Assembly: GCF_002001165.1 (NCBI RefSeq)
Contig: NZ_MUNQ01000008.1
Coordinates: 124,001-188,000 of the forward strand
Length of the DNA: 64,000 bases
Source: Rhodanobacter sp. C05
GTDB lineage: Bacteria > Pseudomonadota > Gammaproteobacteria > Xanthomonadales > Rhodanobacteraceae
Direction: 5' to 3'
The notes under the pieces were generated by a model, which did no database searches, had not been told where the DNA came from, and saw only the letters and a list, made by a program, of their open reading frames with translations. This document shows, piece after piece, positions 33,853 to 54,315 of this stretch. The first letter of the stretch is position 1. Each line of letters starts with the position of its first letter. Made by a program: the position numbers and the translations under genes.

Positions 33853-34218
33853 ATGAAGATTTCTTCATCTTCGCCGGCGATGGTTCCCCCGCTCAACCTG
33901 TTTTTACGTCTCCTGCAGAACCTTGCCGTAGGTTATTTCAGGGGCCGTTATGCGAACAGGAATGAGTTTTGAGCTTCGGATTCCGGCCGTCGTGGAACGC
34001 ATAACTGGACCGGTGCAATTCGTGGTGCAGTTGAGGTCCGTGGCGCAGAACTACTAGATGCCGTACTGGTGCAGTCCATCTGCCGCTTGTGGTCAAACCT
34101 AGGTGCCCGAAGTCACATCGTTTGCGGTGCGTACAACACACCGTTGTGTACGTTGCGCAACTGAGCCGAGCGGGAACTGGTCAGTAGGCTTTTAGTCGGG
34201 GAGCATCCTTAGTGATCA
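33853..34218. other. non-coding region flanking the Tn7-like element
   Basis: No coding-like frame on either strand. AT-richer than the surroundings. A TGTAC at 34147 could be the outer edge of the transposon, because a GTACA lies at 43581 on the far side, but no matching 5-bp target duplication was found. Confidence 0.4.
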
Positions 34219-34387
34219 GCGACCTGAAATTGCCCTTTCTCTAAGCTATTGATTCATCTCGTTTCATACAGGGCCTTCTACACGCTAGTGGGAAATGACT
34301 GAGCCAACAAACCGCCTTTTTGACGACAACGTGGCCAACAAACGCCGTCAATTTGCAGAAAGCGTCAACAAATTGCCCCTCGTAGAA
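34219..34387 (+). repeat. spaced repeats, candidate TnsB-binding sites (left end)
   Basis: Four related sites read GACCTGAAATTGCCC, GCCAACAAACCGCC, GCCAACAAACGCCG and GTCAACAAATTGCCCC, with cores at about 34227, 34309, 34340 and 34370. The last three are 31 and 30 bases apart. Tn7-type ends carry such repeats for TnsB. They lie between the tniQ stop and the left flank. Confidence 0.6.
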
Positions 34388-34440
34388 GTCGAGGCGAGCA
34401 AAGAATCAGGCATATGGCACTCCTTACCCTACAGGGTGAC

Positions 34441-35835
34441 TCAGTCCGCCATGGCGATCCAACTAACTGAAATACGTTGCAGGTGGCCGTGCTGACATGA
34501 AATTTCAGCCACAGGAATGCGGTGGCTGAGTCTCTGACTTACTTGGCGACGGCGAGAGAGCTTCCTCAACGTAATGGTCAAGCCAATGGCGAACCCCCGA
34601 AGAAGGATGTGGAAGAGAGCGCTCTGTAGCACCCAGCGTCCAGCCAGTTGATCGAATTTCAGGGATTTCTCAGCCTCAGCTGAGCGCAATGGCGTTGCCT
34701 CAGTGGGCCCTGTGATTCGTTGGTCCACCGCGTCGACCAGACAACCGCATAGATCGAGCGACTCGGGCAATACCGTGGATAGATTTAGCCAAGTACCTTC
34801 TCGCGGCGTTCGCCCGAAAGGTAGGATAAAATGATGCGGCCTCGTAGCGATCAGCTCGCCGACAGCAACACGACGCTCCTTCCTGGCTCCATCCTTTTCG
34901 AGATCCAAGCTCGTGCTAGGTGGAAAGCGTGATATCACCGCTTGGGTGATCTTAACCAGTGGGTGGTGCAGGGCGCTCGGTAGTGGAGCGATATTCAGGG
35001 ATGGAGATGTCGCTATGACGATCCAAGGCCAGAAAGCATTTTTCTTGGGTTCAACATCCTTATGATTACTTACGTCCCAGTGACGCATGCGGTCGGCAGA
35101 GTCTGGGGACCTCACGGTGTTTCCAAACTTCCCGTCAGGTAGCGATATCAAGCCGCTCAATGCGGGGTACCAAGCCCCTATAGCAGTCGGCGCAACCAGA
35201 TACCGCCTTCTTCGCTCACCTTCACACCATGTCAAATGCTGTTCAAGCTGCTCAGTAGCGGACGAGACTGGAAATGAACGCATGTCGACAGTCGCGGCCT
35301 TTCGGTCAAACGGGTCATGGCCGCACGCGCAGCGGGTGACGGGGCCTGCTGAAGGAAGAAGACCCTGGTATGGCTTCCCGCACTGATCGCAGGTGCTACG
35401 CAGCTTTATCCCGTGCCAGGGACAGCAATCGACGAACGGCATCTGGAACAACGCACAGTGATAGCCATAGCGAAGGCATTCACAGCAGTGACGAGGGGCT
35501 AGGCGTAGTTCGTTCCAACGGTGACCTACGTCGATAGGACACCATACTTCTTCTGACCAGAATCTTGGAATGTCGGAGTGCTGCAGTCCGACCGCTATTT
35601 CAAGCCGACTCCGTGGGCCACCAGGGCGATGACATGCGCGTAACAGGTCAAGGCCTTGCATAGCCCGCATCCCAAAGATTGCGAAAAGGTCCTTTCGACC
35701 GAACCCGTTCAGTCGCAGGGAACGGATCATCATCCCGTAGCCAGAGAGGTAGGGAAAGTTCGGAAAGTTCAGTCCGATGAGCCCCTGATTTGGTCGTGTC
35801 TCTCCACACATGGCTTCCCACTGTGAAGTGGTCAT
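34441..35835 (-). CDS. tniQ: TniQ/TnsD-like target-selection protein
   Basis: 464 residues from the ATG at 35835, which overlaps the tnsC stop (ATGA); the frame reaches 36006. The N-terminal TniQ domain has a zinc-finger region: C117/C120 (CCECLRYGYHC), CCPWHGIKL with C138 and H141, then C149/C152 (CDQCG) and C169-x-C171-x-H173. Its size is nearer TnsD (about 500) than the short CAST TniQ (about 400), and a C-terminal half of about 290 residues without clear motifs follows, as in TnsD-type att-site binders. TniQ proteins recruit TnsC to a chosen target. Which DNA it recognises is unknown; no tRNA, CRISPR or classical glmS site adjoins it. Confidence 0.85.
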   Translation of the reverse strand: MTTSQWEAMCGETRPNQGLIGLNFPNFPYLSGYGMMIRSLRLNGFGRKDLFAIFGMRAMQGLDLLRACHRPGGPRSRLEIAVGLQHSDIPRFWSEEVWCPIDVGHRWNELRLAPRHCCECLRYGYHCALFQMPFVDCCPWHGIKLRSTCDQCGKPYQGLLPSAGPVTRCACGHDPFDRKAATVDMRSFPVSSATEQLEQHLTWCEGERRRRYLVAPTAIGAWYPALSGLISLPDGKFGNTVRSPDSADRMRHWDVSNHKDVEPKKNAFWPWIVIATSPSLNIAPLPSALHHPLVKITQAVISRFPPSTSLDLEKDGARKERRVAVGELIATRPHHFILPFGRTPREGTWLNLSTVLPESLDLCGCLVDAVDQRITGPTEATPLRSAEAEKSLKFDQLAGRWVLQSALFHILLRGFAIGLTITLRKLSRRRQVSQRLSHRIPVAEISCQHGHLQRISVSWIAMAD

Positions 35836-36815
35836 GCCGCGTTCCTGCCCAAAAGGCCCGCATGGGCATACTCCAATTGCAAGTAGCCAGATGCTTGGAG
35901 GGCTGCCCGAATATGTTCTGGACGAAACGACCGAAAGGCGGGATCTCTTCCTGCCACGTTGCAGAGCAGGAACTTCACCATGCTCGTGAATGTTTTCATC
36001 GGCCAATCGTTTTCAGGGGTCAGTCCTGCAGCAACGCGAATGTCCTTAACGACCTCCATGATCATTGGTGCCTGAGATTCAAACTCATAGCCATTTGCGA
36101 CAGCGCTTGGTGCAAAATTTGCGACAAAAGAGATGTCACTCTCCACCGGCCAAAAATTCGAATGCTGATAGCGCTGAAGCGCATGGGCAACTTCAGCAAA
36201 GCCCCTCAGTCCCGTCACCCTATGTGTTCCCATCATGAACCGACCGACGATGTGCGAAGGATAAGCGGTGGCTACGGCACTGATATCGATGCCGCTCGCG
36301 TCACTCTGCCGCATGAATGCGATGAACAAACGGACTCCATTTTCTTCGATCACATCATCGATGCCGCAGAGATAATCGAGTTCGGCCAGACTGATGTGTT
36401 GCGCGTTGTCTACGAACAGGACCATGAGATTCACGCCTGCAGCGCCGCAGCGATTGAGCACAAAGTCAATGATGCGATCTTTCTTCAATGACCCAATCGG
36501 ACGGTCGGCAGCAGTTAGATACAGAGCATCACCCATCGATGAATAGAAGGCGCCATCACTCTTTCTTGTGCCACCTGGCATGATGAGACGGGCGGCAACG
36601 CCACCACCTATAACGTTTTGCAACCATTGAGTTTGATGGTTACAAAGGTAGCGCAGGATATTCGTCTTTCCGGTACGGCCCGGGCCTTCGGCTATGGCAC
36701 CGTGATGGTCCTCATTGATGTTGCTGAGAATAAAATTCATGTAACGCTCTAAAGGCCGGGTATAGATCTGGAACCCTTTAGGGACATAAATGGGGTGTAT
36801 GTCGGAGACACTCAT
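35832..36815 (-). CDS. tnsC: TnsC/TniB-type AAA+ ATPase
   Basis: 327 residues. Walker A GPGRTGKT (44-51) and Walker B MVLFVDNAQH with Asp136. The FVDNAQ form, with Asp-Asn in place of Asp-Glu, is common in TniB/TnsC. TnsC polymerises on target DNA and links TniQ to the TnsAB transposase. It begins within the tnsB stop (ATGA) and ends within the tniQ start, so all three are translationally coupled. Confidence 0.93.
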   Translation of the reverse strand: MSVSDIHPIYVPKGFQIYTRPLERYMNFILSNINEDHHGAIAEGPGRTGKTNILRYLCNHQTQWLQNVIGGGVAARLIMPGGTRKSDGAFYSSMGDALYLTAADRPIGSLKKDRIIDFVLNRCGAAGVNLMVLFVDNAQHISLAELDYLCGIDDVIEENGVRLFIAFMRQSDASGIDISAVATAYPSHIVGRFMMGTHRVTGLRGFAEVAHALQRYQHSNFWPVESDISFVANFAPSAVANGYEFESQAPMIMEVVKDIRVAAGLTPENDWPMKTFTSMVKFLLCNVAGRDPAFRSFRPEHIRAALQASGYLQLEYAHAGLLGRNAA

Positions 36816-38686
36816 CGTGAATCCCTCTTCCCATCAAAGGTGATCCAATCGACAAATGGACGCGTTTCATCACTACGCTGAGCCGGGGGGTGTCTGGAAT
36901 TGATTGGCGTACCCGAGTGCTGCATGCGCGCAAGCTGATCTGTGGCAGGTTGCGAATTCCCGGCCAACGATTTTAGATGCGAGACGTAGGCGTCGATTGC
37001 ACAATCAACGCCGTTAAGCTTCAGCAATCCTTGCTTGGCCCACTGAAATATCAGTTTGCGCGTCGTCTCGTCATGCGGGGTGGTATCCCAAGGACGCGCG
37101 GCGCGCATCACGCCATACGGCTGCGTCGCCGTTCGGTAAAGAACGATCGTCCGTAGATCGTTTCGATACACTTTGGCAAGAACCTTTTGCCCAACAAGCT
37201 CCCACGCGTTGTCAAAATTACCGCTCCTATAGCGAACGTACGCGTAATTCACATGGGGGAGATCCCCACTCTTGCGATTGCCACGCACGGTGACGGGAAC
37301 GATCGTGCTACCCATGTCCGGAGCGCACATCGAACCGTCCGCTGCTTCATAGAACCAAGACCGATCGGTTCCATGCATCTGTAGGTACTGCAGTGGTGTC
37401 AGTGTGCCCAGGCTAGGGTGCTGGGTGGCGTTGTAACCGGTGACGATGACTTCAACGAGTTCTTCGAACCACTGGAGCTGGATCGGGCAATCATCTGGCG
37501 AGAAATTGCTGATACGTATTTTGTTATCGCCCAATCGCGTTGCGGGCTCAAACCCGCCAGCAACATGTCGGAATGCTCCACGCTCCAGCCGTGAGAACAA
37601 TTGCTCAATGATGGGGCGCGTGCGTGGCGCGTGCGCAACCCCGGTATTGAGAACACCATCGTAAACGCGACAAAAGGCCTGCTCAATGGCGTGTGCATGG
37701 TGCGCTTTCGCGTTATCCATGGCAGTCAGCAGCGGTCGGCGTCCAGCAAAAGCGGGAGAGAGGCTTGATGGCATGCCAGCGCCGATGGCGTACTCCAGAC
37801 CAGGCAGGGTGAGTGTCCTGCGCTCCCACGTTTCCAAGGCGCGTGCAAAACACAGTGCCACGTCTAAATTGTTGTAAGCCTTTCCGACACGGAGGCACCA
37901 ACTGACGATGGCGCGTGACTCAACCTCTACAATGGCTAGAAGCCAGATAGTCGAGATATAACGTCTTACTTCGCCGCCATTTGGCATACGCACACCAAGC
38001 TTGGCCTCGATGTCGATACGATGTGCATCAAACTCAAAACGGTCGTAGCAACGACGTGCGAAAAGGTCTGCGAGCGTGGTGGCGGGAGAAGCCTTTTCGT
38101 CGTTAACCAGGGCGGCGACAGAATTTGATTCCCGCTTTCGCCGAAGGTATCGGAGTAGCGCCCGTTGCCCTTGATCTACATGATTGAGAGGGTAAAGCGC
38201 TCCAAGTTGTTTTTGTTTGAGTTCCGTGACGATCTTTCCTTGAAGCTGATTAAAACTTCGCGGGAGCTTTTGTCCTTTGGGCAGCGGGTGATTGTATGCA
38301 TCGACCCATTCACGAATGGTTGGTTGCGCTGCGAGAAGTTGCTCATATGAATGCGGTCTTGCGATCTCGGGCATTGATGCAGGTTCAGCAGCTTCAATCG
38401 CACTGCGTTGATACGTGCCCCAAGCCACGCAAACACGGTACCCATAAGGTTTCCCGTCGGGTGCCAGCTGGGGCGCTTGGCACACCATCTTTCTTAACCG
38501 CTTCGGACACAACTTGTATCTACGTGCGGCGGGAGTGATCGCCGCACCATCGAGAACCCCATCCAAGGCAGTTTCGGCATTGTTGTATCGGATGAGCGCC
38601 TTGGGAGTGAGTAGCGAACGTTCTGGTTTTGTCCAGGTGGCACGTTCGTCTGCCGTCACAATGGGCAGGGAATCAAGGTGTGCCAT
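36812..38686 (-). CDS. tnsB: TnsB/TniA-type DDE transposase (Mu-like)
   Basis: 624 residues. N-terminal helix-turn-helix region (about 25-90), an rve integrase core with D220 (FEFDAHRIDIE), D324 (LLTAMDNAKAHH) and E361 (RPIIEQLFSRLERG), giving the D-104-D-36-E spacing expected, and a C-terminal beta/Mu-like domain (about 470-560, YAYVRYRSGNFDNAWELVGQKVLAKVYRNDLRTIVLY). It binds the element ends and joins 3' ends to target DNA. It overlaps tnsA by 14 bases. Confidence 0.95.
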   Translation of the reverse strand: MAHLDSLPIVTADERATWTKPERSLLTPKALIRYNNAETALDGVLDGAAITPAARRYKLCPKRLRKMVCQAPQLAPDGKPYGYRVCVAWGTYQRSAIEAAEPASMPEIARPHSYEQLLAAQPTIREWVDAYNHPLPKGQKLPRSFNQLQGKIVTELKQKQLGALYPLNHVDQGQRALLRYLRRKRESNSVAALVNDEKASPATTLADLFARRCYDRFEFDAHRIDIEAKLGVRMPNGGEVRRYISTIWLLAIVEVESRAIVSWCLRVGKAYNNLDVALCFARALETWERRTLTLPGLEYAIGAGMPSSLSPAFAGRRPLLTAMDNAKAHHAHAIEQAFCRVYDGVLNTGVAHAPRTRPIIEQLFSRLERGAFRHVAGGFEPATRLGDNKIRISNFSPDDCPIQLQWFEELVEVIVTGYNATQHPSLGTLTPLQYLQMHGTDRSWFYEAADGSMCAPDMGSTIVPVTVRGNRKSGDLPHVNYAYVRYRSGNFDNAWELVGQKVLAKVYRNDLRTIVLYRTATQPYGVMRAARPWDTTPHDETTRKLIFQWAKQGLLKLNGVDCAIDAYVSHLKSLAGNSQPATDQLARMQHSGTPINSRHPPAQRSDETRPFVDWITFDGKRDSR

Positions 38687-39419
38687 GGCCGACCTCCAGT
38701 TCCAAAAAGGAGTCCGGCGAAAGATGACTTGTCTCGGACAGGCGAATCTCGCCTTTATGGATCATCGCGGCTGCAATAGCTGTCACGTGACGAGGATCAT
38801 GCCGATGCAGAATGTGGTGGAGTTGTCGAAACGTCGCTCTCTCAATATTCGATAGATACGCGTAGATTTCATCGCGAATCGTCGCTAGCCCGGCTATCCT
38901 TCTTGCCGATTGGACGTATGCCAGAAGTCGAAAATAGGTAGAGATCTTCTCTCCTTCCCGTACGAGCTCATGCTCAAAAACATGATTGACCTTCAGGCCT
39001 TGTCGCTCGGCAGCCTGGTGCAGCAGATCGCGCTCCCTGGCGGCCATGTCACCGCCTAATGTGACGACGGTCGCCGACGAAGGAACCGTCAGATGAAAGC
39101 GTTCCTCTCCTGAATGTCGACGTGTCCAAAAGGAAAGGTCGATATGTCGCCGCGCCGATAGAATGAGTCGGCATGGACGCTCAACGTAGGCGGCGATCTG
39201 AGGATCGAATTCGAACTGTAGCCCCAATGCGAAGTTCAGCGCCTCAGTGATCGAGGTCACCCGAAGATTCCTGGGTGAGTAGAAAACGTAGAGATCCGCC
39301 TTGGATCGTTCGTTAGGTGTGAGCAGCCGCGGTTGGTAGGGAAGGTTAGGATCAAATGATCGCAACGGCGAACCAGCCACTTCGGGTGGCCATTGAGTGG
39401 CAGAGGCGCCGGCGGTCAT
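38673..39419 (-). CDS. tnsA: TnsA-like endonuclease with an altered active site
   Basis: 248 residues. It aligns with Tn7 TnsA: a Glu in SITEALNFALGLQFEFDPQIAAYVERPCRL (E59 region), Asp94 in HIDLSF, and a C-terminal helical/HTH part (about 130-248) that would contact TnsB/TnsC. In Tn7, the 5'-cutting site is Glu63, Asp114, Gln130 and Lys132. The segment that should hold Gln and Lys reads RFHLTVPSSA, putting Val112 where Lys is expected. If real, 5' cutting would be lost and transposition would be replicative. The assignment rests on context and by-eye alignment. Confidence 0.8.
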   Translation of the reverse strand: MTAGASATQWPPEVAGSPLRSFDPNLPYQPRLLTPNERSKADLYVFYSPRNLRVTSITEALNFALGLQFEFDPQIAAYVERPCRLILSARRHIDLSFWTRRHSGEERFHLTVPSSATVVTLGGDMAARERDLLHQAAERQGLKVNHVFEHELVREGEKISTYFRLLAYVQSARRIAGLATIRDEIYAYLSNIERATFRQLHHILHRHDPRHVTAIAAAMIHKGEIRLSETSHLSPDSFLELEVGHGTP

Positions 39420-39737
39420 TGGTCGTCTCCGTTGCCGCTGGCGTGTTCAGTAGGGACAGGCTTAGGCAAGAGCTCAATAAATCGAAATCGGCCACCGCCG
39501 ACAAGAAATTTTCGCTGTCCAGTGAGACTCGCGAGCACACTGAGAGACCGCTGGCGCATCGCCAGCGATGGAGTCGTGACATTCATATTGGCTTCCCCGA
39601 GGTATAGCGCCGGTAGGGCGCTTGTGTGCGGGACACGAAACGAGGTAGCCTACGAGTGTTCACTCGCCGAAAGGCACCGCCCCTGGTTCCAGCCAGGGGT
39701 TTTTCATTTCTGTCGATTGGTTCGGCGACTTATCAGG
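39420..39737. other. non-coding region upstream of tnsA
   Basis: About 320 bases upstream of the tnsA operon and downstream of the small DNA-binding gene. It should contain the tns promoter. An imperfect inverted pair (GACAAGAAATTTTCGCTGTC at about 39499-39518) lies here, and a terminator-like hairpin at 39680. Open frames on both strands are not coding-like. Confidence 0.45.
39680..39704 (+). terminator. strong plus-strand hairpin with T-run
   Basis: Perfect 7-bp stem CCCCTGG / CCAGGGG with loop TTCCAG, then TTTTT. It is oriented to end plus-strand transcription, although no plus-strand protein gene lies before it, so it may end a small RNA starting upstream of about 39600. Confidence 0.7.
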
Positions 39738-40028
39738 TCATGTGGATTTTTGCCTCGCTCTGTTTCGTCTAGGCGGAAGTTTTTCGTCTTCTGGCGGAGC
39801 ACCACGCGATGCGAGCCAATCAGCGACATCGTGCGTCAGTGCGAATGGCCCCTTGCGGCCCTCAATCGGGAACACCTGAAAAGGAACTCGCCTGGTGGCA
39901 ATCGCCACGCGAAGTGCTGCTTGGCTCGAAAAGCCAAGCGCTTGCCGTAGTCCTGCGCTTCCCATGACATAGCCCCAATTGGAAAGTAGTGAATCCAGTA
40001 GGCGTTGTTCCAACGACTTGCTGCCCAT
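39738..40028 (-). CDS. small DNA-binding-type protein common in genomic islands
   Basis: 96 residues. Pattern: LEQRLLDSLLSNWGYVMGSAGLRQALGFSSQAALRVAIATRRVPFQVFPIEGRKGPFALTHDVADWLASRG. The helix-turn-helix-like block GLRQALGFSSQAALRVAI and the beta stretch FPIEGRKGPFALT recall AlpA/MerR-like excisionase-type helpers. I have seen this kind in xanthomonad integrative elements, without an assigned function. A role in control of transposition or excision is a guess. Confidence 0.7.
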   Translation of the reverse strand: MGSKSLEQRLLDSLLSNWGYVMGSAGLRQALGFSSQAALRVAIATRRVPFQVFPIEGRKGPFALTHDVADWLASRGAPPEDEKLPPRRNRARQKST

Positions 40029-40196
40029 GGGGTTTCACCGTGACGAGATAGGCGTCTTTATCGCTAATTCGCGGGAGCTTGACCATACTGTCACGGAAAC
40101 GCGTTTGTGCCTGATAAGTAATTACTTGAAATACATGTACTTATGCTGCAACCATGGTCGTTCTTGCACGGTGTGAAGGTATTCGCTTTGAGTACG

Positions 40197-41276
40197 ATGC
40201 AGCAAAATTCGCCAAATCGTCGCCCAAAATCTCTTGGAAAGATGCCATCCCCAATCCTTCTAGAAACCAGTTGGAATTTTCGAAAAGACTTTGCGGGCAC
40301 TCTAAGGAGCATGGCGTCGATCGAGACGGCCATTTTCAGCGTGCCGACTCACAGCGCGCATGCTGTGGAAAAGCGTCTCGGATGGGTTGACGGTCGAAGC
40401 TCAGAAGCTGGGAACCAAAACTCAGGCCGCATTGCTAAAGCGCGAGTTGGCAAACACGTTTTGCAGGAAGGAACGCTCGCAACCTTAGCCCTGCAGTTCG
40501 ACGACGTTAGCTCAGCAATACGTTCGCCCTTGTGGGATTTGGTGCGAACGGGCAGCTTCTCAGAAAACTTGGGCGGTGATGACTACGGGGTGTTGAACGA
40601 CGCAGCCTATTGGGCCATCCACGTGCCTATACCATTCATTTCTGCGGAACGTGGCCGCTCATGGCTCATCGAGCGGCCCACCGAGGACCAGCTTGCCAAG
40701 CTGGCAGCTCAAGGTTCTCTTGATGCGGTCGCAGCCCTTTGGATGTTGATTCTGGACAGCGGAAAATCGAAGAGTGACCTGAAACAAATCTTCACCATCG
40801 CGACCTACATTCCACCGACACTTGCTCTGCTTTCGCTAAGCCCGGTGGGATTGCGTATCGCGCGGCTCCTGTTTGCCCGAATTCGTCAACAGACCCTGGA
40901 TAATCTGACCTTCGATGGGTACCAGCTTTCGTTGGGACACTACGATTTGGCGAAGGTCGCAGGAACCGTTACCGGCTGGTCGCCAGGTTGCATTGGGCCT
41001 GCAAATCCCTATACAAAGGAACGCGGTAGAGTAGAGGCTGAGCCCTTGCCATCGGTGATTCATGATTGGCTGGAGCGATCTCGAGCACCCATGCGCAAGG
41101 TGCGGCGGCAGCCGGCTAAGCCCCGCTGGCGAGTAGATCTCAGTCCGTCAGCGCACACAATTGAACGCAGGTTTGAGCTTGAACATCCCAGTGTCATGCA
41201 TCCCAGGGCGATCAGCATCTGCAAGGCAGAACTCAAGGACTATTGGGAACATCGGACCCATGTTGCAACAACTTGA
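40197..41276 (+). CDS. unknown 359-residue protein (transposon cargo)
   Basis: Starts at the Met at 40197 (MQQNSPNRRPKSLGK) with GAG upstream; the Met at 40242 or 40314 is possible. No signal peptide. Middle part has short hydrophobic helices (SLDAVAALWMLILDSGKSKSDLKQIFTIATYIPPTLALLSLSPVGLRIARLLFARI), but not true membrane spans. The C-terminus is rich in Arg/Lys/Pro (APMRKVRRQPAKPRWRVDLSP). I do not recognise it. It sits in the stretch typical for transposon cargo, diverging from the small DNA-binding gene. Confidence 0.75.
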   Translation: MQQNSPNRRPKSLGKMPSPILLETSWNFRKDFAGTLRSMASIETAIFSVPTHSAHAVEKRLGWVDGRSSEAGNQNSGRIAKARVGKHVLQEGTLATLALQFDDVSSAIRSPLWDLVRTGSFSENLGGDDYGVLNDAAYWAIHVPIPFISAERGRSWLIERPTEDQLAKLAAQGSLDAVAALWMLILDSGKSKSDLKQIFTIATYIPPTLALLSLSPVGLRIARLLFARIRQQTLDNLTFDGYQLSLGHYDLAKVAGTVTGWSPGCIGPANPYTKERGRVEAEPLPSVIHDWLERSRAPMRKVRRQPAKPRWRVDLSPSAHTIERRFELEHPSVMHPRAISICKAELKDYWEHRTHVATT

Positions 41277-41319
41277 TCGATGACCATAAGGGCGCGTGCG
41301 CTGGTTGGGCAGCCGGAGT

Positions 41320-41637
41320 CTAGCCAGACTCGGCTTCTTTCAGTATTTTTTCTTGTCCAGCAGCGTCCAACTTGCTGAACGCGCGGATCATCCGTGCAAG
41401 CCGCTCGCTGTCGGCATAGAGATAGGCAAGTGGCACGCCAAGCACCTTCGCCATCCGCTTCGCTGTTGCTAGATCCGCAGCGTGAACGTCTTGCTCGTAC
41501 CGATTGATGCGTGTGCTAGCCACAAAAGGATCCAACCCGGCGAGAATGCCCAGCTCCTTCTGGGATAGACCGGCATCCTCCCGCGCCTGTCTTAAGCGCT
41601 TGCTGAAAATGGATGACGGATTGCTCTGGCGAGGCAT
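41320..41637 (-). CDS. XRE-family transcriptional repressor
   Basis: 105 residues. Helix-turn-helix: SKRLRQAREDAGLSQKELGILAGLDPFVASTRINRYEQDVHAADLATAKRMAKVLGVPLAYLY, with a short C-terminal helical tail. This fits Cro/CI-type regulators. Its start is 7 bases from the palindromic region 41644-41710, so autoregulation is likely. It faces the plus-strand gene at 41766. Confidence 0.92.
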   Translation of the reverse strand: MPRQSNPSSIFSKRLRQAREDAGLSQKELGILAGLDPFVASTRINRYEQDVHAADLATAKRMAKVLGVPLAYLYADSERLARMIRAFSKLDAAGQEKILKEAESG

Positions 41638-41643
41638 GGACAG

Positions 41644-41667
41644 CTCGTAGTTGGTAGCACCTACGAG
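41644..41667. promoter_or_regulatory. operator site 1 for the XRE regulator
   Basis: CTCGTAG, ten bases, CTACGAG: an inverted repeat directly before the XRE gene start. The TCGTAG/CTACGA half-site also forms the palindrome at 41694. Confidence 0.65.
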
Positions 41668-41693
41668 ATTCGTTGCTTTGCCGTGCTTCCGAT

Positions 41694-41710
41694 ACTACGA
41701 TATTCGTAGT
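41694..41710. promoter_or_regulatory. operator site 2, perfect palindrome
   Basis: ACTACGA TAT TCGTAGT, a perfect 7-3-7 palindrome in the divergent promoter region, sharing its half-site with 41644-41667. Most likely bound by the XRE protein and controlling both divergent genes. Confidence 0.7.
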
Positions 41711-41765
41711 TTTCGCAACAGCCCCGGCTCTTGGCCGCCCTACCAACGATAGGAAGCCACGCCCC

Positions 41766-42131
41766 ATGCTCCTGCAATTGGTGTTCGAGGATCAGTGGTT
41801 CATACCCGTGCCGGTGGATGACCGACTTCAGGAGGCGCTTGATGTTCAGCGCGAACGGGCATATCGCGGTGACATGGACGAAGCGTTCACAGATCGCTTG
41901 TCCGCATGCATTTCCAATTCTCTCGCTGAGTGCCTCGATCCTGACTTACAACTACCAACAGCTAATCAGATGAAATATGCCACTGATATTGCGCGTGAGC
42001 TTGGCGTGGCGATTCCAGCGGATGTATTGCGTTACCGTGGCGCAGCGCATGAATTCATTGATCGATTCGAGGAAATGTTTCGTGCAAACCGACAACGGCG
42101 CGACATCGCCATAGGGCCGCCTCGTGCGTGA
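41766..42131 (+). CDS. hypothetical protein in the cargo region
   Basis: 121 residues from the ATG at 41766 (MLLQLVFEDQWFIPVPVDDRLQEAL). The frame opens earlier over the operators. Helical and soluble, with the phrase QMKYATDIARELGVAIPADVLRYRGAAHEFIDRF, a form seen in short island proteins of unknown role. It is read from the promoter shared with the XRE gene. Confidence 0.65.
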   Translation: MLLQLVFEDQWFIPVPVDDRLQEALDVQRERAYRGDMDEAFTDRLSACISNSLAECLDPDLQLPTANQMKYATDIARELGVAIPADVLRYRGAAHEFIDRFEEMFRANRQRRDIAIGPPRA

Positions 42132-42238
42132 GCGATACCTATGAGAAGGGAGTGGAGAGCTAGCACCCACCAACAACGCGCTTGGGTGACCTATTCGCCA
42201 GCACAGTCACGAGATTCTGATCCCTGCATGAGGTGGCT

Positions 42239-42502
42239 ATGACCCAACCTTACGAACGCTCTTGGGCAGTCATCGAAACACGGAGCTTCCTGACGGCACT
42301 ACTCGTCAATCGAAGGATTCCTGCGGCGGTTCTCGAGCGGGCGCGCACCTTGCTTCGCCATTATCCCAGTGGGAGCGAGGTGTTCCGCGCAGGATGGCAA
42401 GAGCTTGCCGATCCCTACCTTGTCCTCGAGCCCGTCTTTGACACAAGCATTGATGGCACCCCTTCGCCTAACTGGTCAGCGCCACAACGCACCGAATCGT
42501 GA
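42239..42502 (+). CDS. BPSL0761 family protein
   Basis: 87 residues from the ATG at 42239 (GAGGTGG upstream; a GTG two codons earlier is possible). The family pattern is MTQPYERSWAVIETRSFLTALL..., then AVLERARTLLRHYPSGSEV. Members occur on genomic islands and plasmids in proteobacteria; function unknown. The C-terminal 25 residues are poorly conserved. It lies between two other small cargo genes. Confidence 0.8.
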   Translation: MTQPYERSWAVIETRSFLTALLVNRRIPAAVLERARTLLRHYPSGSEVFRAGWQELADPYLVLEPVFDTSIDGTPSPNWSAPQRTES

Positions 42503-42609
42503 AAATGACCGCATGGAACCGATGTACGCGCGCTTGCTTCGTTGCTACACAGCCGAACAGCCAGGCCCAGCATTGCCTAGCGTGGCGTCGATCCAGAAGG
42601 TTGAATTGA

Positions 42610-43356
42610 ATGGCAAAGGTCACGACTGACAAGCTTTCGCAGCTACTGATTGCTGCACGGGCTACGCCGCTGGTAGAAAACCCTGTGCACGCCGAGGAGG
42701 CGGTCTTCAAGGCATTGCTTGATGCGACCGTATACGCACATGTGCCGCTGGAGAACGCGCCCGAGGGCGTGATGCGCTTCATCCAGTTCGTGCGCCCGGA
42801 CAACAAACAAACCGTCCTTCCATTCTTTAGCGATCGGGAACAGGCCGAAGCGGCCTCAGTGAACAGAAGAGTGGCCATTGTGGCCATGTCGGGGCGGCGA
42901 TTGCTCGAACTGACACGGGGTGCCACATTGATGCTGAACCCCAACATCGATCAGGTAGCTTTGTATCCACCGGAAATCGTGGCTCTCCTCGAGGGGCGCT
43001 CCCTCGGTTACTACACCCAGGAAACCATTGAGCAGAGCGAGCAGGTCGGTGTGTGTCCGCCCACGGAACCCGCAAACGAACTGGTTCTTGCCCTTCGTGA
43101 TCTTTTCCAGAGAGAGGCAACGATCCGGGCCGCCTACTTGGCCGAGATTCATCGGGGGGCCGACGGCGCCGACATATTCCTTTTGCTCACGATCGTTGTG
43201 CCGCCGGCACACAAGGAACGCCTCATCCACCTGATCACACTGGCGATCCAGTCTGTCTCGTCGTATTTGACGCTACCACTCACTGTGACCTGTATATCCC
43301 CTGATGCCTCGCTCCCGGATCTCTGTCACCACGGGATCCAGTTTTATGGAACCTGA
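42610..43356 (+). CDS. SseB-family protein
   Basis: 248 residues. The N-terminal SseB domain reads ARATPLVENPVHAEEAVFKALLDATVYAHVPLENAPEGVMRFIQFVRPDNKQTVLPFFSDREQAEAAS, followed by LELTRGATLMLNPNIDQVALYPPEIVALLEG. The second half has an SseB C-terminal-like fold (AAYLAEIHRGADGADIFLLLTIVVPPAHKERLIHLITLAI). The product is cytosolic with no known mechanism; relatives are often found in mobile-element cargo. No signal peptide. Confidence 0.85.
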   Translation: MAKVTTDKLSQLLIAARATPLVENPVHAEEAVFKALLDATVYAHVPLENAPEGVMRFIQFVRPDNKQTVLPFFSDREQAEAASVNRRVAIVAMSGRRLLELTRGATLMLNPNIDQVALYPPEIVALLEGRSLGYYTQETIEQSEQVGVCPPTEPANELVLALRDLFQREATIRAAYLAEIHRGADGADIFLLLTIVVPPAHKERLIHLITLAIQSVSSYLTLPLTVTCISPDASLPDLCHHGIQFYGT

Positions 43357-43470
43357 CGTAATCGTATGCCTTCGCTCATTCGAACCAGCCAGACCCATCC
43401 ACTACGTATCGCCACCATTCCGGTGGGTGAACGCGGTGGCGCCATCGGCGTAGCGACAGCGGCTACTTGA

Positions 43471-43487
43471 AGGGGCATTGTTGTCGT
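43471..43487 (-). repeat. inverted match to the transposon end repeats
   Basis: AGGGGCATTGTTGTCG, the reverse complement of a CGACAACAATGCCCCT site resembling GTCAACAAATTGCCCCT at 34364-34380. A weaker TGGCAATCCCAGTGAC follows at 43543. Only one good copy, so the right end is tentative. Confidence 0.45.
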
Positions 43488-43621
43488 AACTGCGAGGTGT
43501 CTCTTGCAACGCCTCGCACGCGCAATCACGCCACGGGCTGCATGGCAATCCCAGTGACTAATCGTCAGTAACACTCGTTGGTACATAAATTTTTCACACA
43601 GAGCCCTCTTGGGATTCCACG

Positions 43622-45067
43622 TCAGGGTCGTTGGGTCTGCGCAATTGCTCCCGGTTTCGCCGGTGTTCCCTCCGCAATAGTTAGGTATTTAGTAGCGGAG
43701 GCATCAGTTCCTTCGATGACCCGCCGGATAGGGCCGACGGTGTCGACAATCGCGGATCCGGCCGGGTTAGTGATGAAAGCCGCTATCGGCTGCAGACTGC
43801 CTCCACCATTGGGTTTTGAGGATAAAGCAAGGATGTATGGTTGCTTTGGCATGAGGCCCGCGACGGATGCCTGCAAAACTTGAACTAAACCTTGGTCAAA
43901 CAGGCTGACGCTGGTCGTTGGGCCATGCGGATTGGCAGGCGATGACAGGACCAAATGCGCAGCCTCGCCGCTCAGCCCGAGTGGTTGAAGTCCCTGCGTT
44001 CCGTCGCCTGACGATACAGCGCCCGGTACATAGACTAAAGCCTGTGGCGCTTGACCGATGGGAATTGTCGCGACGACTGCATTGGTGATGGTATCTATGG
44101 CCGCCAGTTTGTCGTCATTCTCAAGGCCGACATAGATTCGGGTTCCGTCGCCCGATGGCCAGAGGCCGTGGGGAAGCTTGCCTACTGGAATAGTGGCGAC
44201 CTTTGCGAAATCGCTTGTTCTGAAGACCTGTACTTCATTCAGTCCGCCGACAGTCACGTAGGCGAACTGGCCGTGAGCGTTGTGGACAAAGTTGACGTGG
44301 TTGGTGATCGGACCTGTATCGAGGATCTTGAGGACAGTGAAAGGTGGTTTGGCTGAAAAGGCGACGACTTTGCCTACATCCTTAAGGGTAAACCAAACCT
44401 GCTTGCCATCTGGCGACGCAGCAATGTTCGGGCAGAAAGGGCTGGGCTGAGCGATCCTACCAACGATCTTGTGGTCGTCAACGGTGACGACGACTGTCGT
44501 AGGGTTGAACGAAGAGCAGATGTAGCCGTAGCGCCCATCCGGCGAAAAGATCGTCATGCCAGGGCCACCGGGAGTTTTGATCCTCGCGGTTTCCCGATAG
44601 GTCACTGGATCGATCACCGAGACATAATCCTCGCCGCGGACGGTCGCCCAGACCTCCTTTCCGTCGGGAGTGAAAAATGCTTCGTGCGGCGATCGACCAA
44701 TGTACGTCGTGTGCTTTACCGCGTTCGTCGCGGTATCGATAAAGGTGATTGAGTTCGAGCCAATCGAAACGACCACAAGTGTTTTGTGGTCAGGCGAGAA
44801 ACCCATGCCGTGCACGAGCACCTGTCCTTTGTAGAGCGGACTGAAATTGCCAGGCTGCGGATCACCCAGTCGGATCACACCGAGTAGTTTGTTGTCCGCC
44901 GGATCGGTGACCGACACCGTGTTGGAAAATTGTTCGGCGGCGTAGACGCGGTCGCGATGGCTAATAGCGATGTCCGGTGATGCCGATGCGCTTGGCGTCA
45001 GGCCAGCCCATGCGCTTGATGAAATACAGCAGGCCAGTATCGCGGCATGGCAATAGTTGCGGTGCAT
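43622..45067 (-). CDS. YncE-type beta-propeller protein (periplasmic)
   Basis: 481 residues from the ATG at 45067, with AGGAG seven bases upstream; the frame to 45220 is open but not coding-like. Signal peptide (cleavage about 22, SSAWA-GLT). The mature part has YVTN-type repeats: NTVSVTDPADNKLLGVI, NSITFIDTATNAVKH, PHEAFFTPDGKEVWATVRGEDYVSVIDPVTYRETARI, KIVGRIAQPSPFCPNIAASPDGKQVWFTL, NEVQVFRTSDFAKVATIPVGKLPHGLWPSGDGTRIYVGLENDDKLAAIDTITNAVVATIPIGQAPQALVYVPGA. These resemble cytochrome-cd1-like propellers. The last 130 residues are a separate domain. It starts 1 base after the DUF305 stop; the DUF302-DUF305-propeller order suggests one operon. Confidence 0.9.
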   Translation of the reverse strand: MHRNYCHAAILACCISSSAWAGLTPSASASPDIAISHRDRVYAAEQFSNTVSVTDPADNKLLGVIRLGDPQPGNFSPLYKGQVLVHGMGFSPDHKTLVVVSIGSNSITFIDTATNAVKHTTYIGRSPHEAFFTPDGKEVWATVRGEDYVSVIDPVTYRETARIKTPGGPGMTIFSPDGRYGYICSSFNPTTVVVTVDDHKIVGRIAQPSPFCPNIAASPDGKQVWFTLKDVGKVVAFSAKPPFTVLKILDTGPITNHVNFVHNAHGQFAYVTVGGLNEVQVFRTSDFAKVATIPVGKLPHGLWPSGDGTRIYVGLENDDKLAAIDTITNAVVATIPIGQAPQALVYVPGAVSSGDGTQGLQPLGLSGEAAHLVLSSPANPHGPTTSVSLFDQGLVQVLQASVAGLMPKQPYILALSSKPNGGGSLQPIAAFITNPAGSAIVDTVGPIRRVIEGTDASATKYLTIAEGTPAKPGAIAQTQRP

Positions 45068-45068
45068 A

Positions 45069-45494
45069 TCAGCGCTCCTGTTCGGCATGCATGCCGGAAT
45101 GATCAGACATGGGGCTATCGGGTTGGGTGGGCGAAGGAATTGATGGTGGCAATTGCTGGCCCAGAGCGAGATGCATCGCCGCGATCTCCTGCAGCTGATC
45201 AACGATGATCTCTTGCGCAATCCGCTTGAGTTGTTCGTTGTGTCCGAATCGCAATTCAGCCACCGCCATGTCGATCGCGCCTTGATGATGCGGCACCATC
45301 ATCGCCACAAAGTCCCTGTCCACATCACCGGTGGGCTTGGTCATCATGCCTGCATCCATGGTCGTCATCGCCTTTGATGTTTCGGCCAGGAACGTCGACG
45401 TCTGATTGACTGGATGAGATGCTTTAGCGCTCGCCAGCGGAAAGGCCAGCATCAATACAACCAGGAATTTCTTGCTCGATGAATTGGGACTCAT
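45069..45494 (-). CDS. DUF305 family periplasmic protein
   Basis: 141 residues: signal peptide (cleavage about 24, SAKA-SHP), then the DUF305 core DRDFVAMMVPHHQGAIDMAVAELRFGHNEQLKRIAQEIIVDQLQEIAAMH with the His-His-Gly and Met-rich pattern used to bind Cu or other metals in CopM-type proteins. The C-terminus is disordered. It overlaps the DUF302 gene by an ATGA and precedes the YncE-type gene by one base. Confidence 0.9.
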   Translation of the reverse strand: MSPNSSSKKFLVVLMLAFPLASAKASHPVNQTSTFLAETSKAMTTMDAGMMTKPTGDVDRDFVAMMVPHHQGAIDMAVAELRFGHNEQLKRIAQEIIVDQLQEIAAMHLALGQQLPPSIPSPTQPDSPMSDHSGMHAEQER

Positions 45495-45889
45495 GGCTCG
45501 ATCGCCTTCAAGAGAAGGTTCTGCGCTGGTTCCAGACGACTGGCAAGCGCAGCAGGTACGCCCGATTCTTCCAGCGTCGGCACGATGTCTCGGAAAGAAA
45601 CGATGGTTCGACCGCCGATGTCTTCTCGTACAAGAACGTGAAGAGGCAAGTCCAATGCGCTCTGCGGAGAGGCGAGCATGACGGGCGTTCCACCTTCAGC
45701 TTTTCCATAGATAAGAATGACCGTGGCGGGCATGCTGAGTCCCACATCGCGCGCGTTCGCGGCATGATCGATGAGGGCGAACAGCTTCATGCCCGCGTTC
45801 GAAATCGCTACTGACAGTCGATTCACCGTTTTCTCGAAAGTGAAGGGGCTGTTCAATTCGATCACAGACCTGCTATCTGAGTGGGTCAT
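45491..45889 (-). CDS. DUF302 family protein
   Basis: 132 residues from the ATG at 45889, with GAGAG six bases upstream. Core: ELNSPFTFEKTVNRLSVAISNAGMKLFALIDHAANARDVGLSMPATVILIYGKAEGGTPVMLASPQSALDLPLHVLVREDIGGRTIVSFRDI. DUF302 is a small fold with unknown function, often near redox and metal genes. The fold recurs as the C-terminal domain of the protein at 50496-52109, with clear sequence similarity (IDHAANARDVG against IDHSENATRVG). Confidence 0.9.
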   Translation of the reverse strand: MTHSDSRSVIELNSPFTFEKTVNRLSVAISNAGMKLFALIDHAANARDVGLSMPATVILIYGKAEGGTPVMLASPQSALDLPLHVLVREDIGGRTIVSFRDIVPTLEESGVPAALASRLEPAQNLLLKAIEP

Positions 45890-46093
45890 GTGCATCTCTC
45901 TCGGTAGACTCGATGTGTCTGGCTGGGCAGAGGCTTTCAATTCCGAAGGCCTTACCGCAATGGAAGATTAGGAGAAGGTGACCATCACCGCTTCCTTCCA
46001 AAGTGGTAGGCCTGCATCACTTCACCAATCGCGAAATGTGAGTGATTGAATGGCATCAGCAATGCAAACGAAACTGTCGTTCAAACAAGCGAT

Positions 46094-49027: not shown

Positions 49028-49427
49028 GCGGAAAGGAAATCCTCGACGTGTGTAGCCGAAACTCACGAGACAAAGCACCGCGCCCGCGATGCTTTTTTCG
49101 TTCGTGAAACAGATATCCCCAGGCCGGACAAGGACCGTATGCACGGGAGTCCCGACCGACAGCCCATTTGGCCATCCGAATCATCGTCGACCACGTTGCA
49201 TCCTAAGTGTTGTCCGATTCATGGAGTTGGTCAAATCGCGCTACCACTTTAGCGGTACTTGCTCTCTAGCCTTGCGGGCGATGACGTCGGAAGAGAGACC
49301 TCCTATTTTGTAGTCGGCAGGTCCACGGTGCTCCAAGGATAGGAAAAAGATGCTGCGTCGCACATCAGCTGGCGATGCCCGGACCTGCCTCTGATCGTCT
49401 TTCATTTGCGCGTTGCGGGAGATCGTC
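49028..49427. other. intergenic region between divergent genes
   Basis: About 400 bases between the second propeller kinase and the CPBP gene. A minus-strand frame from 49241 has no protein features. It holds both promoters; GGGAG lies just before the GTG at 49428. No repeat seen. Confidence 0.4.
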
Positions 49428-50285
49428 GTGACCTTGTCCGAACTATCGCGTATTCCATCCGCACACGCCGGAATCCTTGCTCCAGGCAAATGGTTCCGGT
49501 GGCGCGCCCTATCGTGGGCATCCGCTCTTTTTGTGTTTGCTGCCTTGGTTTTTGTCGCGTCACTGCAGCTGCCGGAATGGCTGTCGCTCTCAGTCGTTTC
49601 CGGATACTGGATCGGGATCATCCTTCCGCTCGCCGGCCTGGCCGTTTACGGATTGGCCGTAAAGCTGTGCGAGCAACGCAGACCCAACGAAATCGCGTTG
49701 CGTCATGCGCCCCGATATTTCCTGCTCGGCGGACTAGTCGGATTCGCCTTCATGGCGTTGTCGCTGCTGTTGCTCTGGCTTTTCGGCCTGAACGATGTGA
49801 GCCGCGGGCATTGGCATGACGCATTCCATTATCTGGTCTTCAACGCGTACATCTCCGCCGTCGTCGAGGAACTGGCCTTCAGGGCAATCCTGTTGCGGAT
49901 CTTCGCCCGCATGTTCGGGCCGTTGCCCGGACTGCTGATTTCGGCGGTCCTGTTTGCAGCCGCGCACGCGAGTCATGCGCCACCGCTGGCGCTTGTTCTA
50001 CTCGTCATCAACGGCGGTCTGCTGATGGGCGTGCTGTACATGATCAGCGGAAGCCTCTGGCTACCCATCGGTGCGCACATCGCCTACGACTTCACCGAGT
50101 GGTCGCTCTTCGGTGTGGGTGATACGGACGGCTATCTGGTCGTGACGCCATCGACTGCTCACGCGGCATGGCTGACGGGAGGAGCAACCGGACCCGATGG
50201 TTCAGTATTGTCCGCACTGGTCACGTGCGTGCTGATCGTCATGGTTGTACTCGTCGCGCGAACCCATTCGTTGAAGCAGACATAG
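49428..50285 (+). CDS. CPBP-family intramembrane protease
   Basis: 285 residues from the GTG at 49428 (GGGAG upstream); a TTG at 49413 is the alternative. About eight membrane segments. The family motifs are present: EELAFRAILLRIF (the Glu-Glu-x-x-x-Arg motif), VLFAAAHASHAPPLA (the His), and LYMISGSLWLPIGAHIAYDF (the third motif). CPBP proteases cut within membranes; bacterial members are linked to bacteriocin self-immunity or maturation of exported proteins. It is read away from the propeller kinase. Confidence 0.9.
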   Translation: MTLSELSRIPSAHAGILAPGKWFRWRALSWASALFVFAALVFVASLQLPEWLSLSVVSGYWIGIILPLAGLAVYGLAVKLCEQRRPNEIALRHAPRYFLLGGLVGFAFMALSLLLLWLFGLNDVSRGHWHDAFHYLVFNAYISAVVEELAFRAILLRIFARMFGPLPGLLISAVLFAAAHASHAPPLALVLLVINGGLLMGVLYMISGSLWLPIGAHIAYDFTEWSLFGVGDTDGYLVVTPSTAHAAWLTGGATGPDGSVLSALVTCVLIVMVVLVARTHSLKQT

Positions 50286-50495
50286 CCATCATGTTGATCC
50301 GCGGTCCATCCCGGATGGAGATCGCTGAAGCAGCTGCGTTTAAAAAAAAATCGTGGCGTGCGCAGGTTAGCCCTTAGGGAGTAGCGATCTCGCTGCAGGA
50401 AGAGAGATGCGGCTTTGATGCCGCGTCAATAACTTGGACACAGTCCGACAGTCATACGAACCGGCTATCGCGTCCCAATCATAGAGGAATGATCT
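50286..50495. other. short promoter region
   Basis: About 210 bases holding an A8 run at 50344 and a GAGGAATGATCT ribosome-binding region before the ATG at 50496. Nothing coding-like. Confidence 0.4.
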
Positions 50496-52109: not shown

Positions 52110-52127
52110 CTGACGGGAGCTATGCCC

Positions 52128-52910: not shown

Positions 52911-53032
52911 GCCCCGGCGAACCGATACGCGACGGTGCAGCCTGCAATTTCAAGACGGCGCGTACCTCTTTTGGGCGATTCACCCGATCGTGCCGGGCGG
53001 TATCAAGGAAACAGCATAGAAGGAGCGGGCCA

Positions 53033-54057: not shown

Positions 54058-54108
54058 CACTGAGGTTTTGCTTCCGCTCGATGATGGCAAGCGGCGCACT
54101 ACGCAATG

Positions 54109-54315
54109 CTAGTCAGTCAGCTGAGTCGATCGAATGTCCTTCATCGTCCGCAATCCGACGCTCCAGTGGTCGGACTCCACTTCATAAAGAATGATGGTTA
54201 CGGCGTGCTCTGGAACGCGTAGCGTGCGCTGGGCGACGGCAGCCACTTCTTTCATGAAGACAGACTTCTGTTCGGCGGTGCGGCCGGCAAGCATATGAAC
54301 ATGGATGAAGGGCAT
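54109..54315 (-). CDS. 4-oxalocrotonate tautomerase-family protein
   Basis: 68 residues. The mature N-terminal Pro follows Met1 (MPFIHVHMLAGRTAEQKSVFMKEVAAVAQRTL), which is the family's catalytic base; the Arg in LAGRTAEQK fits too. It probably forms a hexamer or trimer that isomerises keto-enol compounds. It lies just after the zinc-independent quinone oxidoreductase gene on the same strand. Confidence 0.88.
   Translation of the reverse strand: MPFIHVHMLAGRTAEQKSVFMKEVAAVAQRTLRVPEHAVTIILYEVESDHWSVGLRTMKDIRSTQLTD

What the first reader, a model, noticed from the sequence alone, without database searches (positions are those of the whole stretch)
34147..43585. Tn7-like transposon with TniQ and no CRISPR, carrying unknown cargo
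A complete tnsA-tnsB-tnsC-tniQ operon is overlapped gene by gene, with spaced end repeats at 34.2-34.4 kb and one inverted match at 43.48 kb. TniQ is 464 residues, near TnsD size. No att gene such as glmS and no CRISPR adjoins, so its target is unknown. The cargo contains an unrecognised 359-residue protein, an SseB-family protein and an XRE switch. The 34-43 kb block has the look of an uncharacterised element.
Basis: partly seen in the sequence, partly recalled or inferred. Interest (0 to 1): 0.8.

Follow-up and report, generated by a model that had tools for sequence, protein, structure and literature searches.

The report
Tn7-like transposon that targets dif
The gene block is one end of a 51-kb Tn7-like jumping element that has inserted about 48 base pairs from dif, the site where bacteria separate their joined chromosomes, and most of its complete relatives in other genera sit at the same spot, a target I did not find described for this kind of element.

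Summary
The left end is at 34213; the true right end lies outside the window, at 85230 in window numbering (C22:209230). The element is 51,018 bp, flanked by the 5-bp duplication CTTAG.

Ten related elements have both ends with matching 5-bp duplications; in 8 the right end lies 41-62 bp from dif, on the XerC side, same orientation. The exceptions are a plasmid copy and a Stenotrophomonas copy 175 bp from a hybrid Xer half-site. The DNA between dif and element is not conserved, so dif, or Xer proteins on it, looks like the address. TnsA is supported by fold, TnsB by an intact DDE triad, TniQ by weak sequence and fold matches, TnsC weakly. Cargo includes Wadjet genes. That TniQ reads dif is inferred. 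Nearest analogue: Tn5053 'res-site hunters'. New variant of a known kind.

The parts
34208..34212 (.). 5-bp target duplication CTTAG, left copy (right copy at window-numbering 85231-85235, outside the window)
   Evidence: same 5 bp next to both ends
34213..64000 (-). Tn7-like transposon, left (tniQ-side) end to window edge; continues to 85230 in window numbering (C22:158213-209230, 51,018 bp)
34213..34236 (-). Left terminal sequence TGATCAGCGACCTGAAATTGCCCT, with terminal TnsB-like site
   Evidence: 23.0 bits; it is one of the sequences the matrix was built from; mirror TGATCAACGACCACGAATTGCCCT at the right end
34301..34318 (-). Inner TnsB-like end repeat
   Evidence: 14.0 bits; it is one of the sequences the matrix was built from; others come from L101, L103, L106
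34362..34379 (-). Inner TnsB-like end repeat
   Evidence: 16.7 bits; likewise in the matrix
34441..35835 (-). tniQ (TnsD-size, 464 aa), inferred target selector
   Evidence: Cys/His of the zinc motifs invariant in 14 of 14 rows; profile hit to PDB TniQ E 3.9e-4; PADLOC TniQ_IF 8.4e-4; top five fold matches are TnsD/TniQ but E 0.011-0.25; Pfam TniQ matches 1 of 14 members, E 0.021, not the window's
35832..36815 (-). tnsC, AAA+ ATPase
   Evidence: Pfam AAA_22 E 9.5e-4, below cut-off; profile hit to ShTnsC E 0.058, weak; G49-K50 invariant in 15 of 15
36812..38686 (-). tnsB, DDE transposase (D220, D324, E361)
   Evidence: three residues invariant in 17 of 17 rows; weak rve / rve_3 / Mu-transpos_C hits (best E 4.4e-4 to 8.5e-3) in 2, 6 and 4 of 17 members, not in the window's own
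38673..39419 (-). tnsA
   Evidence: AlphaFold model pLDDT 85; best four PDB matches are three TnsA chains and one chain of a TnsABCD transpososome, E 1.5e-6 to 2.3e-5
39738..40028 (-). 96-aa ORF upstream of tnsA, recurrent
   Evidence: homologues upstream of tnsA in L037, L038, L041 (and L042, the same plasmid)
40143..41276 (+).
   Evidence: 16-21% identity only; other loci cluster as F8 and F13, without the window's
41320..41637 (-). XRE regulator
   Evidence: Pfam HTH_3 2e-10; 82.5% and 64% homologues on the tnsA side in G006 and G020
42233..42502 (+). BPSL0761-family ORF, cargo
   Evidence: NCBIfam NF041728 over cut-off
42610..43356 (+). SseB-family protein, cargo
   Evidence: Pfam SseB and SseB_C over cut-off
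50496..52109 (+). serine-hydrolase (beta-lactamase family) cargo gene
   Evidence: Pfam PF00144 1.3e-32

Best explanation
A Tn7-like transposon of 51 kb. SHOWN by sequence: it has paired ends carrying transposase-site repeats, a 5-bp target duplication, an operon of TnsA, TnsB, TnsC and TniQ homologues next to its left end, and its right end 48 bp from the XerC arm of dif, an arrangement repeated in relatives of several genera. INFERRED: TnsB binds the end repeats and joins the ends to the target; TnsC bridges; TniQ (TnsD-sized) recognises dif, or XerC/XerD bound to dif, and places the right end toward dif a few turns of DNA away. dif gives the element one conserved, non-coding target per chromosome. 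One relative sits on a conjugative plasmid in which no dif was found, so a second, less specific route probably exists, as in Tn7.
For: Matching duplications at both ends in 10 elements: G000, G020, G060, G061, G062, G066, G067, G068, G056 and plasmid NZ_CP081990.1. In 8 of the 10 the right end is 41-62 bp from dif (G062 41, G000 48, G067 48, G068 49, G060 50, G020 55, G066 57, G061 62), XerC side, same orientation in all 8. These figures are one less than the printed offsets, which count one base twice. Right ends of G062, G067 and G068 (no mismatch) and G061 (one mismatch) are in a genome-wide pattern list made before dif was noticed; that of the window came from its duplication. Four more right ends at dif have no mated left end: G063 55 and G070 58, G421 46 and G292 57 from a 398-genome pattern scan. 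In G068 an older right end lay 58 bp from dif before the present insertion (reconstruction). Of 16 genomes with dif and without a tnsB match none has a right end within 300 bp on the XerC side (best 8.7 bits). The spacer is not conserved. GC skew changes sign near dif.
Against: Right ends of G020, G060 and G066 were found only by looking beside dif, so for them only the duplications are independent evidence; the left end of G020 was chosen by eye and is weak (16.4 bits). G056: 175 bp from a hybrid Xer half-site, 7.4 kb from dif. G064: right end about 367 bp from dif, duplications do not match. Plasmid copy: no Xer-like site within 1.5 kb at 11 or fewer mismatches of 28. G063: duplications do not match. 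G006, G026: no end within 300 bp of dif. G012 and G069: weak end motifs (174 and 56 bp). G065: no dif found. The spacing varies by 21 bp, more than in Tn7 at glmS (recalled). No experiment shows that TniQ binds dif; another element protein could.
Confidence: 0.84

Rival explanations
1. A sub-case of the best explanation: the element senses XerC/XerD bound at dif rather than the dif sequence, as Tn5053-family elements sense resolvase-occupied res sites.
For: Variable spacing (41-62 bp) with no conserved spacer; preferred orientation; the G056 insertion beside a hybrid half-site that keeps only the XerC arm and central region. The Tn5053 parallel is in passages of PMC11406308 and PMC7765201.
Against: No binding data; TniQ is TnsD-sized, which in other elements goes with direct DNA recognition (PMC10293859, section 11). 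In G056 the distance is 175 bp, not 41-62.
Confidence: 0.4
2. It is an element integrated by XerC/XerD at dif (IMEX or filamentous-phage type), with the tns genes as passengers.
For: Sits at dif; a tyrosine recombinase gene lies near the right end.
Against: dif is not duplicated: one per genome; the junctions are 5-bp duplications at transposase-type ends, 41-62 bp away from dif.
Confidence: 0.03
3. The preference is for the replication terminus (as in Tn7's TnsE route), and dif is only a neighbour.
For: dif is at the terminus, with the GC-skew change near it.
Against: Terminus preference spreads over many kilobases (recalled); here 8 of 10 complete elements fall within a 22-bp range of distances on one side of dif.
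Confidence: 0.06
4. An old, fixed island that is no longer mobile.
For: One copy in this genome; TnsA lacks an obvious active-site lysine.
Against: Near-identical relatives end in different DNA in different genomes; the window's duplication is intact; DDE triad intact in 17 of 17.
Confidence: 0.05

Closest known systems
Tn7 (TnsABCDE; target glmS)
   Same: TnsA fold, DDE TnsB, probable AAA+ TnsC, zinc-motif TniQ/TnsD; 5-bp duplication; end repeats; insertion beside one conserved chromosomal site with a fixed orientation; a relative on a conjugative plasmid
   Different: Target is dif; cargo lies between the right end and tnsA, with tniQ next to the left end; tnsE was not searched for and no such gene stood out; ends begin TGA or TGT; sequences too far for Pfam's Tns models
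Tn5053/Tn402 family ('res-site hunters')
   Same: A TniQ-bearing element aimed at the site of a site-specific recombinase, with preferred orientation and 5-bp duplications (PMC11406308, PMC7765201, passages)
   Different: Those lack TnsA and aim at serine-resolvase res sites; here TnsA is present and the site is that of the XerCD tyrosine recombinases
Tn6022 family (TniQ + TnsF, target comM)
   Same: Tn7-like with a chromosomal att site; TnsF is built from XerH-like domains (PMC10293859, section 11 read)
   Different: Target is a gene; the recombinase gene of this element lies near the right end, not with tniQ, and keeps R...HxxR...H...Y residues (by eye)
IMEX / Xer-integrated filamentous prophages
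   Same: Use dif
   Different: They recombine at dif by XerCD (recalled); this one inserts beside it with a 5-bp duplication

Membership tests
Tn7-like transposons | TnsB: DDE transposase of the rve/Mu kind | tested here: met
   D220, D324, E361 invariant in 17 of 17; weak rve, rve_3, Mu-transpos_C matches in some members, not in the window's own
Tn7-like transposons | TnsA endonuclease fold | tested here: met
   Model's four best PDB matches are three TnsA chains and a chain of a TnsABCD transpososome, E 1.5e-6 to 2.3e-5
Tn7-like transposons | TnsA active site (acidic residues plus lysine; recalled) | tested here: inconclusive
   E70 and an acid at 94 in 16 of 16, no lysine at 107-113 in 16 of 16; no residue-level superposition made
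Tn7-like transposons | TnsC AAA+ regulator | tested here: inconclusive
   AAA_22 below cut-off; ShTnsC profile hit E 0.058
Tn7-like transposons | TniQ/TnsD protein | tested here: met
   PDB TniQ profile hit 3.9e-4; top five fold hits TnsD/TniQ, E not below 0.011
Tn7-like transposons | 5-bp target duplication | tested here: met
   10 complete elements; two further left/right pairs (G063, G064) do not match
Tn7-like transposons | Several transposase sites in each end | tested here: met
   Left ends; right ends by eye only,
CRISPR-associated transposons | cas genes and a CRISPR array | tested here: not met
   No exact 20-mer in 3 or more copies within 1 kb in the 51 kb; no cas effector among the PADLOC hits of 20 proteins (WYL, HTH and TniQ_IF models of CRISPR/CAST sets do hit); not every ORF was scanned
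Tn5053 family | No TnsA; own res site and TniR resolvase | tested here: not met
   tnsA present; a tyrosine recombinase near the right end; a serine resolvase was not searched for by itself
Tn5053 family | Insertion at a recombinase site | tested here: met
   dif
IMEX (Xer-integrated) | dif sites at both borders | tested here: not met
   One dif in the genome

The most novel reading that the evidence does not exclude
A family of 'Xer-site hunters': TniQ senses XerC-occupied dif; TnsA has lost its cutting activity, so the element moves replicatively, and the cointegrate is resolved by XerCD at dif or by the element's own right-end tyrosine recombinase. The transposon would then be tied to the cell's chromosome-dimer resolution step and could also board dif-using phages.
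Probability: 0.15. Interest if true: 0.92.

Novelty: new variant of a known kind. Interest (0 to 1): 0.8.

Why it matters
The Tn7-like target sites listed in the review read here (PMC11406308, Table 1, as far as shown) are genes (glmS, yhiN, comM, parE, tRNA genes) and plasmid resolution sites. dif is different: one non-coding site per chromosome, present in most bacteria, bound by host XerCD and already used by phages and IMEX (recalled). A protein selector for dif would be a landing system with a very wide host range, and it makes a clear question testable: does TniQ read DNA or a host recombinase? It would also help to explain why island-like DNA gathers at dif in Xanthomonadales, here including Wadjet defence genes.

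Tried and rejected
Rejected: (1) right end at 43.48 kb (no site). (2) A shared att gene at xre/sseB: xre, p152 and sseB lie on the tnsA side in the window and G006 (xre and p152 in G020), but the group also occurs without tns in G030 and G021, so it is cargo. (3) Xer integration (one dif only). (4) Phage carriage: no match in 50,697 phage records; one IMG/VR contig only.

Led nowhere: single-sequence Pfam, NCBIfam and PDB searches for Tns proteins; the profile searches for TnsB and TnsA in PDB; the PF06527 scan of the own genome, which rang nowhere, controls included; dif core in four Burkholderiales plasmids with distant TnsBs (none); the search for tns genes or a left end in the 99.4 kb beyond the G292 right end (none). 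No exact empty site. The TnsB tree leaves 7 of 14 inner branches open and does not fix the window's sister. In one search, 22 of 30 listed matches have one mismatch: one is G061's right end, five are left ends, and the other 16 were not shown to be ends; flanks were fetched for two of these and only one was looked at.

Papers: search listings only for (113, 128 and 129 found no paper); passages of PMC12907356, PMC10293859, PMC8649781, PMC11406308, PMC7765201; section 11 of PMC10293859. In PMC8649781 'dif' was searched only as the start of a word; the seven matches that were shown are other words. The library lacks most subscription papers and all bioRxiv, so 'not in print' is limited to these searches.
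Full report
THE OPERON. The window is part of a 470-kb contig (C22) of a 4.25-Mb genome. On the minus strand tnsA, tnsB, tnsC and tniQ overlap by 4 to 14 bases. Single-sequence Pfam and NCBIfam scans recognise none of them as Tns proteins. Alignments of relatives do better. TnsB keeps D220, D324 and E361 in 17 of 17 rows. TniQ keeps its Cys/His motifs in 14 of 14, its profile finds a PDB TniQ at E 3.9e-4, and the five best fold matches of its model are TnsD or TniQ, though none is below E 0.011. The TnsA model's best matches are TnsA structures, E 1.5e-6. TnsC is the weakest call: AAA_22 below cut-off and a profile hit to ShTnsC at E 0.058.

RELATIVES. A TnsB match was found in 7 of 60 genomes, the window's own included and one of the others (G051) a marginal fragment; in 59 of 72,556 plasmid records; in 0 of 50,697 phage records; and at 16 loci of the species-genome scan, whose titles name Lysobacterales genera (several are the same genomes as).

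FINDING THE ENDS. Two Stenotrophomonas loci are 99.95% identical over 34.6 kb, and two Xanthomonas loci 99.4% identical over 6.9 kb; both pairs break off at one base a few hundred bases past tniQ and continue into unrelated DNA. That base follows a terminal motif, with several copies of a GGGC-containing repeat inside. The same motif and repeats stand at window 34213-34379. The five bases outside are CTTAG.

The far end was found by asking for the same five bases beyond an inverted end. In 163.5 kb of the contig 'CACTTAG' occurs twice, and one of the two reads GGGCAATTCGTGGTCGTTGATCA followed by CTTAG, at C22:209230. The element is therefore 51,018 bp. Its right end is outside the window.

MATED ENDS. 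Mated ends with equal 5-bp duplications were obtained for ten elements (given here as read with tnsA to the left of tniQ; the window's is CTAAG that way, CTTAG on the plus strand). Six have both ends on one contig: the window's, G020 (ACGAC), G060 (TCCGG), G067 (TCAGT, 79 kb), G056 (AAGGC, 86 kb) and plasmid NZ_CP081990.1 (ACTGC, 23 kb). Four have ends on two contigs of one assembly: G061 (GTTCG), G062 (CTAGG), G066 (ACATG), G068 (GCTGC). The left end of G020 was picked by eye and scores only 16.4 bits. In G063 and G064 the left and right flanks do not match. A 2.5-kb element without tns genes sits beside the left end in Pseudoxanthomonas PXM02, with duplication CTCCT.

THE TARGET. Printing the flanks showed one shared string beyond six chromosomal right ends, the XerCD site dif, and none beyond the plasmid's. 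A 28-base dif pattern with up to three mismatches gives exactly one match in 30 of 34 records. A core pattern adds one each in G064 and G068; G065 and the plasmid have none. Counting the bases between the last T of the XerC arm and the first base of the right end: G062 41, G000 48, G067 48, G068 49, G060 50, G020 55, G066 57, G061 62. Four right ends without a mated left end fit as well: G063 55, G070 58, G421 46, G292 57. Printed offsets are one higher (except G068) because a base was counted twice there; the window's own coordinates (right end 209230, dif 209279-209306) give 48.

All twelve lie on the XerC side with the right end toward dif. In G068 the left end is followed, nine bases after the duplication, by another right end; before the present insertion that older right end would have lain 58 bp from dif. 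So the site was probably used twice.

HOW INDEPENDENT IS THIS. The right ends of G062, G063, G067, G068 and G070 came from a genome-wide pattern run before dif had been noticed: of its 8 perfect matches, 5 are at dif, 2 are right ends abutting another element's left end, and 1 is the plasmid's. Of its 22 one-mismatch matches one more is at dif (G061), five are left ends and 16 were not shown to be ends. The window's right end came from its duplication. G020, G060 and G066 were found only within 300 bp of dif, but each then showed the duplication already read at its left end, 3 of 3 (4 of 4 with G061). Of 30 dif loci examined, 16 belong to genomes without a tnsB match; the best XerC-side score there is 8.7 bits, against 12.2 for the 99th percentile of 3000 random stretches, some of which hold true ends. 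One tns-free genome (G018) has a 15.5-bit match on the other side, 123 bp away, not followed up. A combined pattern of dif, gap and right end matched 4 of 398 genomes of the order, 0 when read backwards. The four are the window's, G416 (the same match as G070, apparently the same assembly), G421 and G292; the last two were new. G292 has no tns gene or left end in the next 99.4 kb, so it may be a solo right end; of G421 only 6 kb of contig lies beyond.

AGAINST. G056 sits 175 bp from a hybrid Xer half-site and 7.4 kb from dif. G064 has a right end about 367 bp from dif without a matching duplication. The plasmid copy has no Xer-like site near it, although its TnsB is closest to that of G070, whose genome has a right end at dif. 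G006 and G026 show no end within 300 bp of dif; G012 and G069 have only weak candidates at 174 and 56 bp, and in G069 the tns genes lie on the other side of dif. No exact empty site was found: in tns-free G016 parts of the flanks are in the same order but about 430 bp further apart.

MECHANISM. The bases between dif and the insertions differ from element to element, so dif itself, or XerCD on it, is the likely address. TniQ is the size of TnsD and is the natural candidate, but this is inference. TnsA keeps E70 and an acid at position 94 in 16 of 16 rows but no lysine at 107-113 in any, which raises, without showing, the possibility of an inactive nuclease and replicative movement. Near the right end a tyrosine recombinase and a KfrA-like DNA-binding protein (name recalled) recur: within 3.3 kb of the right end in the window's element, the plasmid's and G066, and also in the fetched stretches of L100, L101/L104, L107 and L106, in the last of these outside the left end. 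They might resolve cointegrates or help to choose the target.

CARGO. Within the window: XRE and SseB genes, a BPSL0761-family gene, a serine hydrolase, and, by eye from the translations, a large two-component-type sensor (46094-49144) and a response regulator (53407-54057). Beyond it: Wadjet JetA, JetC and JetD (jetB not looked for), a WYL regulator, DUF3800, H-NS and the recombinase.

WHAT IS KNOWN. Tn5053-family transposons use their single TniQ to aim at resolvase sites (passages of PMC11406308 and PMC7765201). PMC11406308's table, as far as shown, lists glmS, yhiN, comM, plasmid resolution sites, parE and tRNA genes; the whole word dif does not occur in its main text or in that of PMC10293859. 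None of my searches listed a paper whose title or abstract start speaks of a Tn7-like element aimed at dif. The element is therefore a Tn7-like transposon by its tested features, with a target that appears to be new.

Noticed in passing
L100 (Pseudoxanthomonas PXM02) about 17056-19526: A 2.5-kb element with both ends and duplication CTCCT but no tns genes, carrying what looks by eye like a trypsin-like protease gene, 27 bp beyond the left end of a full element; probably moved in trans.
   Followed up: partly
L107 14469-14506 (X. prunicola): Left end of one element followed after 14 bp by the right end of another: probably two successive insertions at dif, at 58 and then 49 bp.
   Followed up: yes
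L226 (G292:C1:304015-304106): Right end 57 bp from dif with no tns genes or left end in the next 99.4 kb: perhaps a solo end left by a deletion.
   Followed up: partly
C22:189793-197357 (window-numbering 65793-73357): WYL regulator, then Wadjet JetA, JetC and JetD inside the element.
   Followed up: partly
window 33622-33735 and C22:208379-208492: 114 bp at 85% identity, one copy just outside the left end and one 0.74 kb inside the right end; perhaps a remnant of an earlier element at the same site.
   Followed up: partly
window 32888-33070: Dispersed repeat of about 170-183 bp, 95-98% identical to copies on C3 and at C22:151131, and present in G004.
   Followed up: no
window 41320-43356; L089, L091: xre-p152-p89-sseB gene group, on the tnsA side in some elements but also present in genomes without a tnsB match, in G030 next to a Tn3-like transposase (recognised by eye).
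   Followed up: partly
L204 (G056:C86:90151-97541): A hybrid Xer half-site and a full dif 7.2 kb apart with similar flanks (by eye), as a dif-integrating phage might leave.
   Followed up: no
L043 (Paraburkholderia megapolitana plasmid): Two distant tnsA-tnsB-tnsC operons about 10 kb apart on one plasmid, each with a short TniQ-like match.
   Followed up: no
L205 (G069:C12:98138), Dyella monticola: A weak right-end motif 56 bp from dif, while that genome's tns operon lies 52 kb away on the other side of dif.
   Followed up: partly
L191 (G018): A 15.5-bit end-like match 123 bp from dif on the XerD side in a genome without a tnsB match.
   Followed up: no
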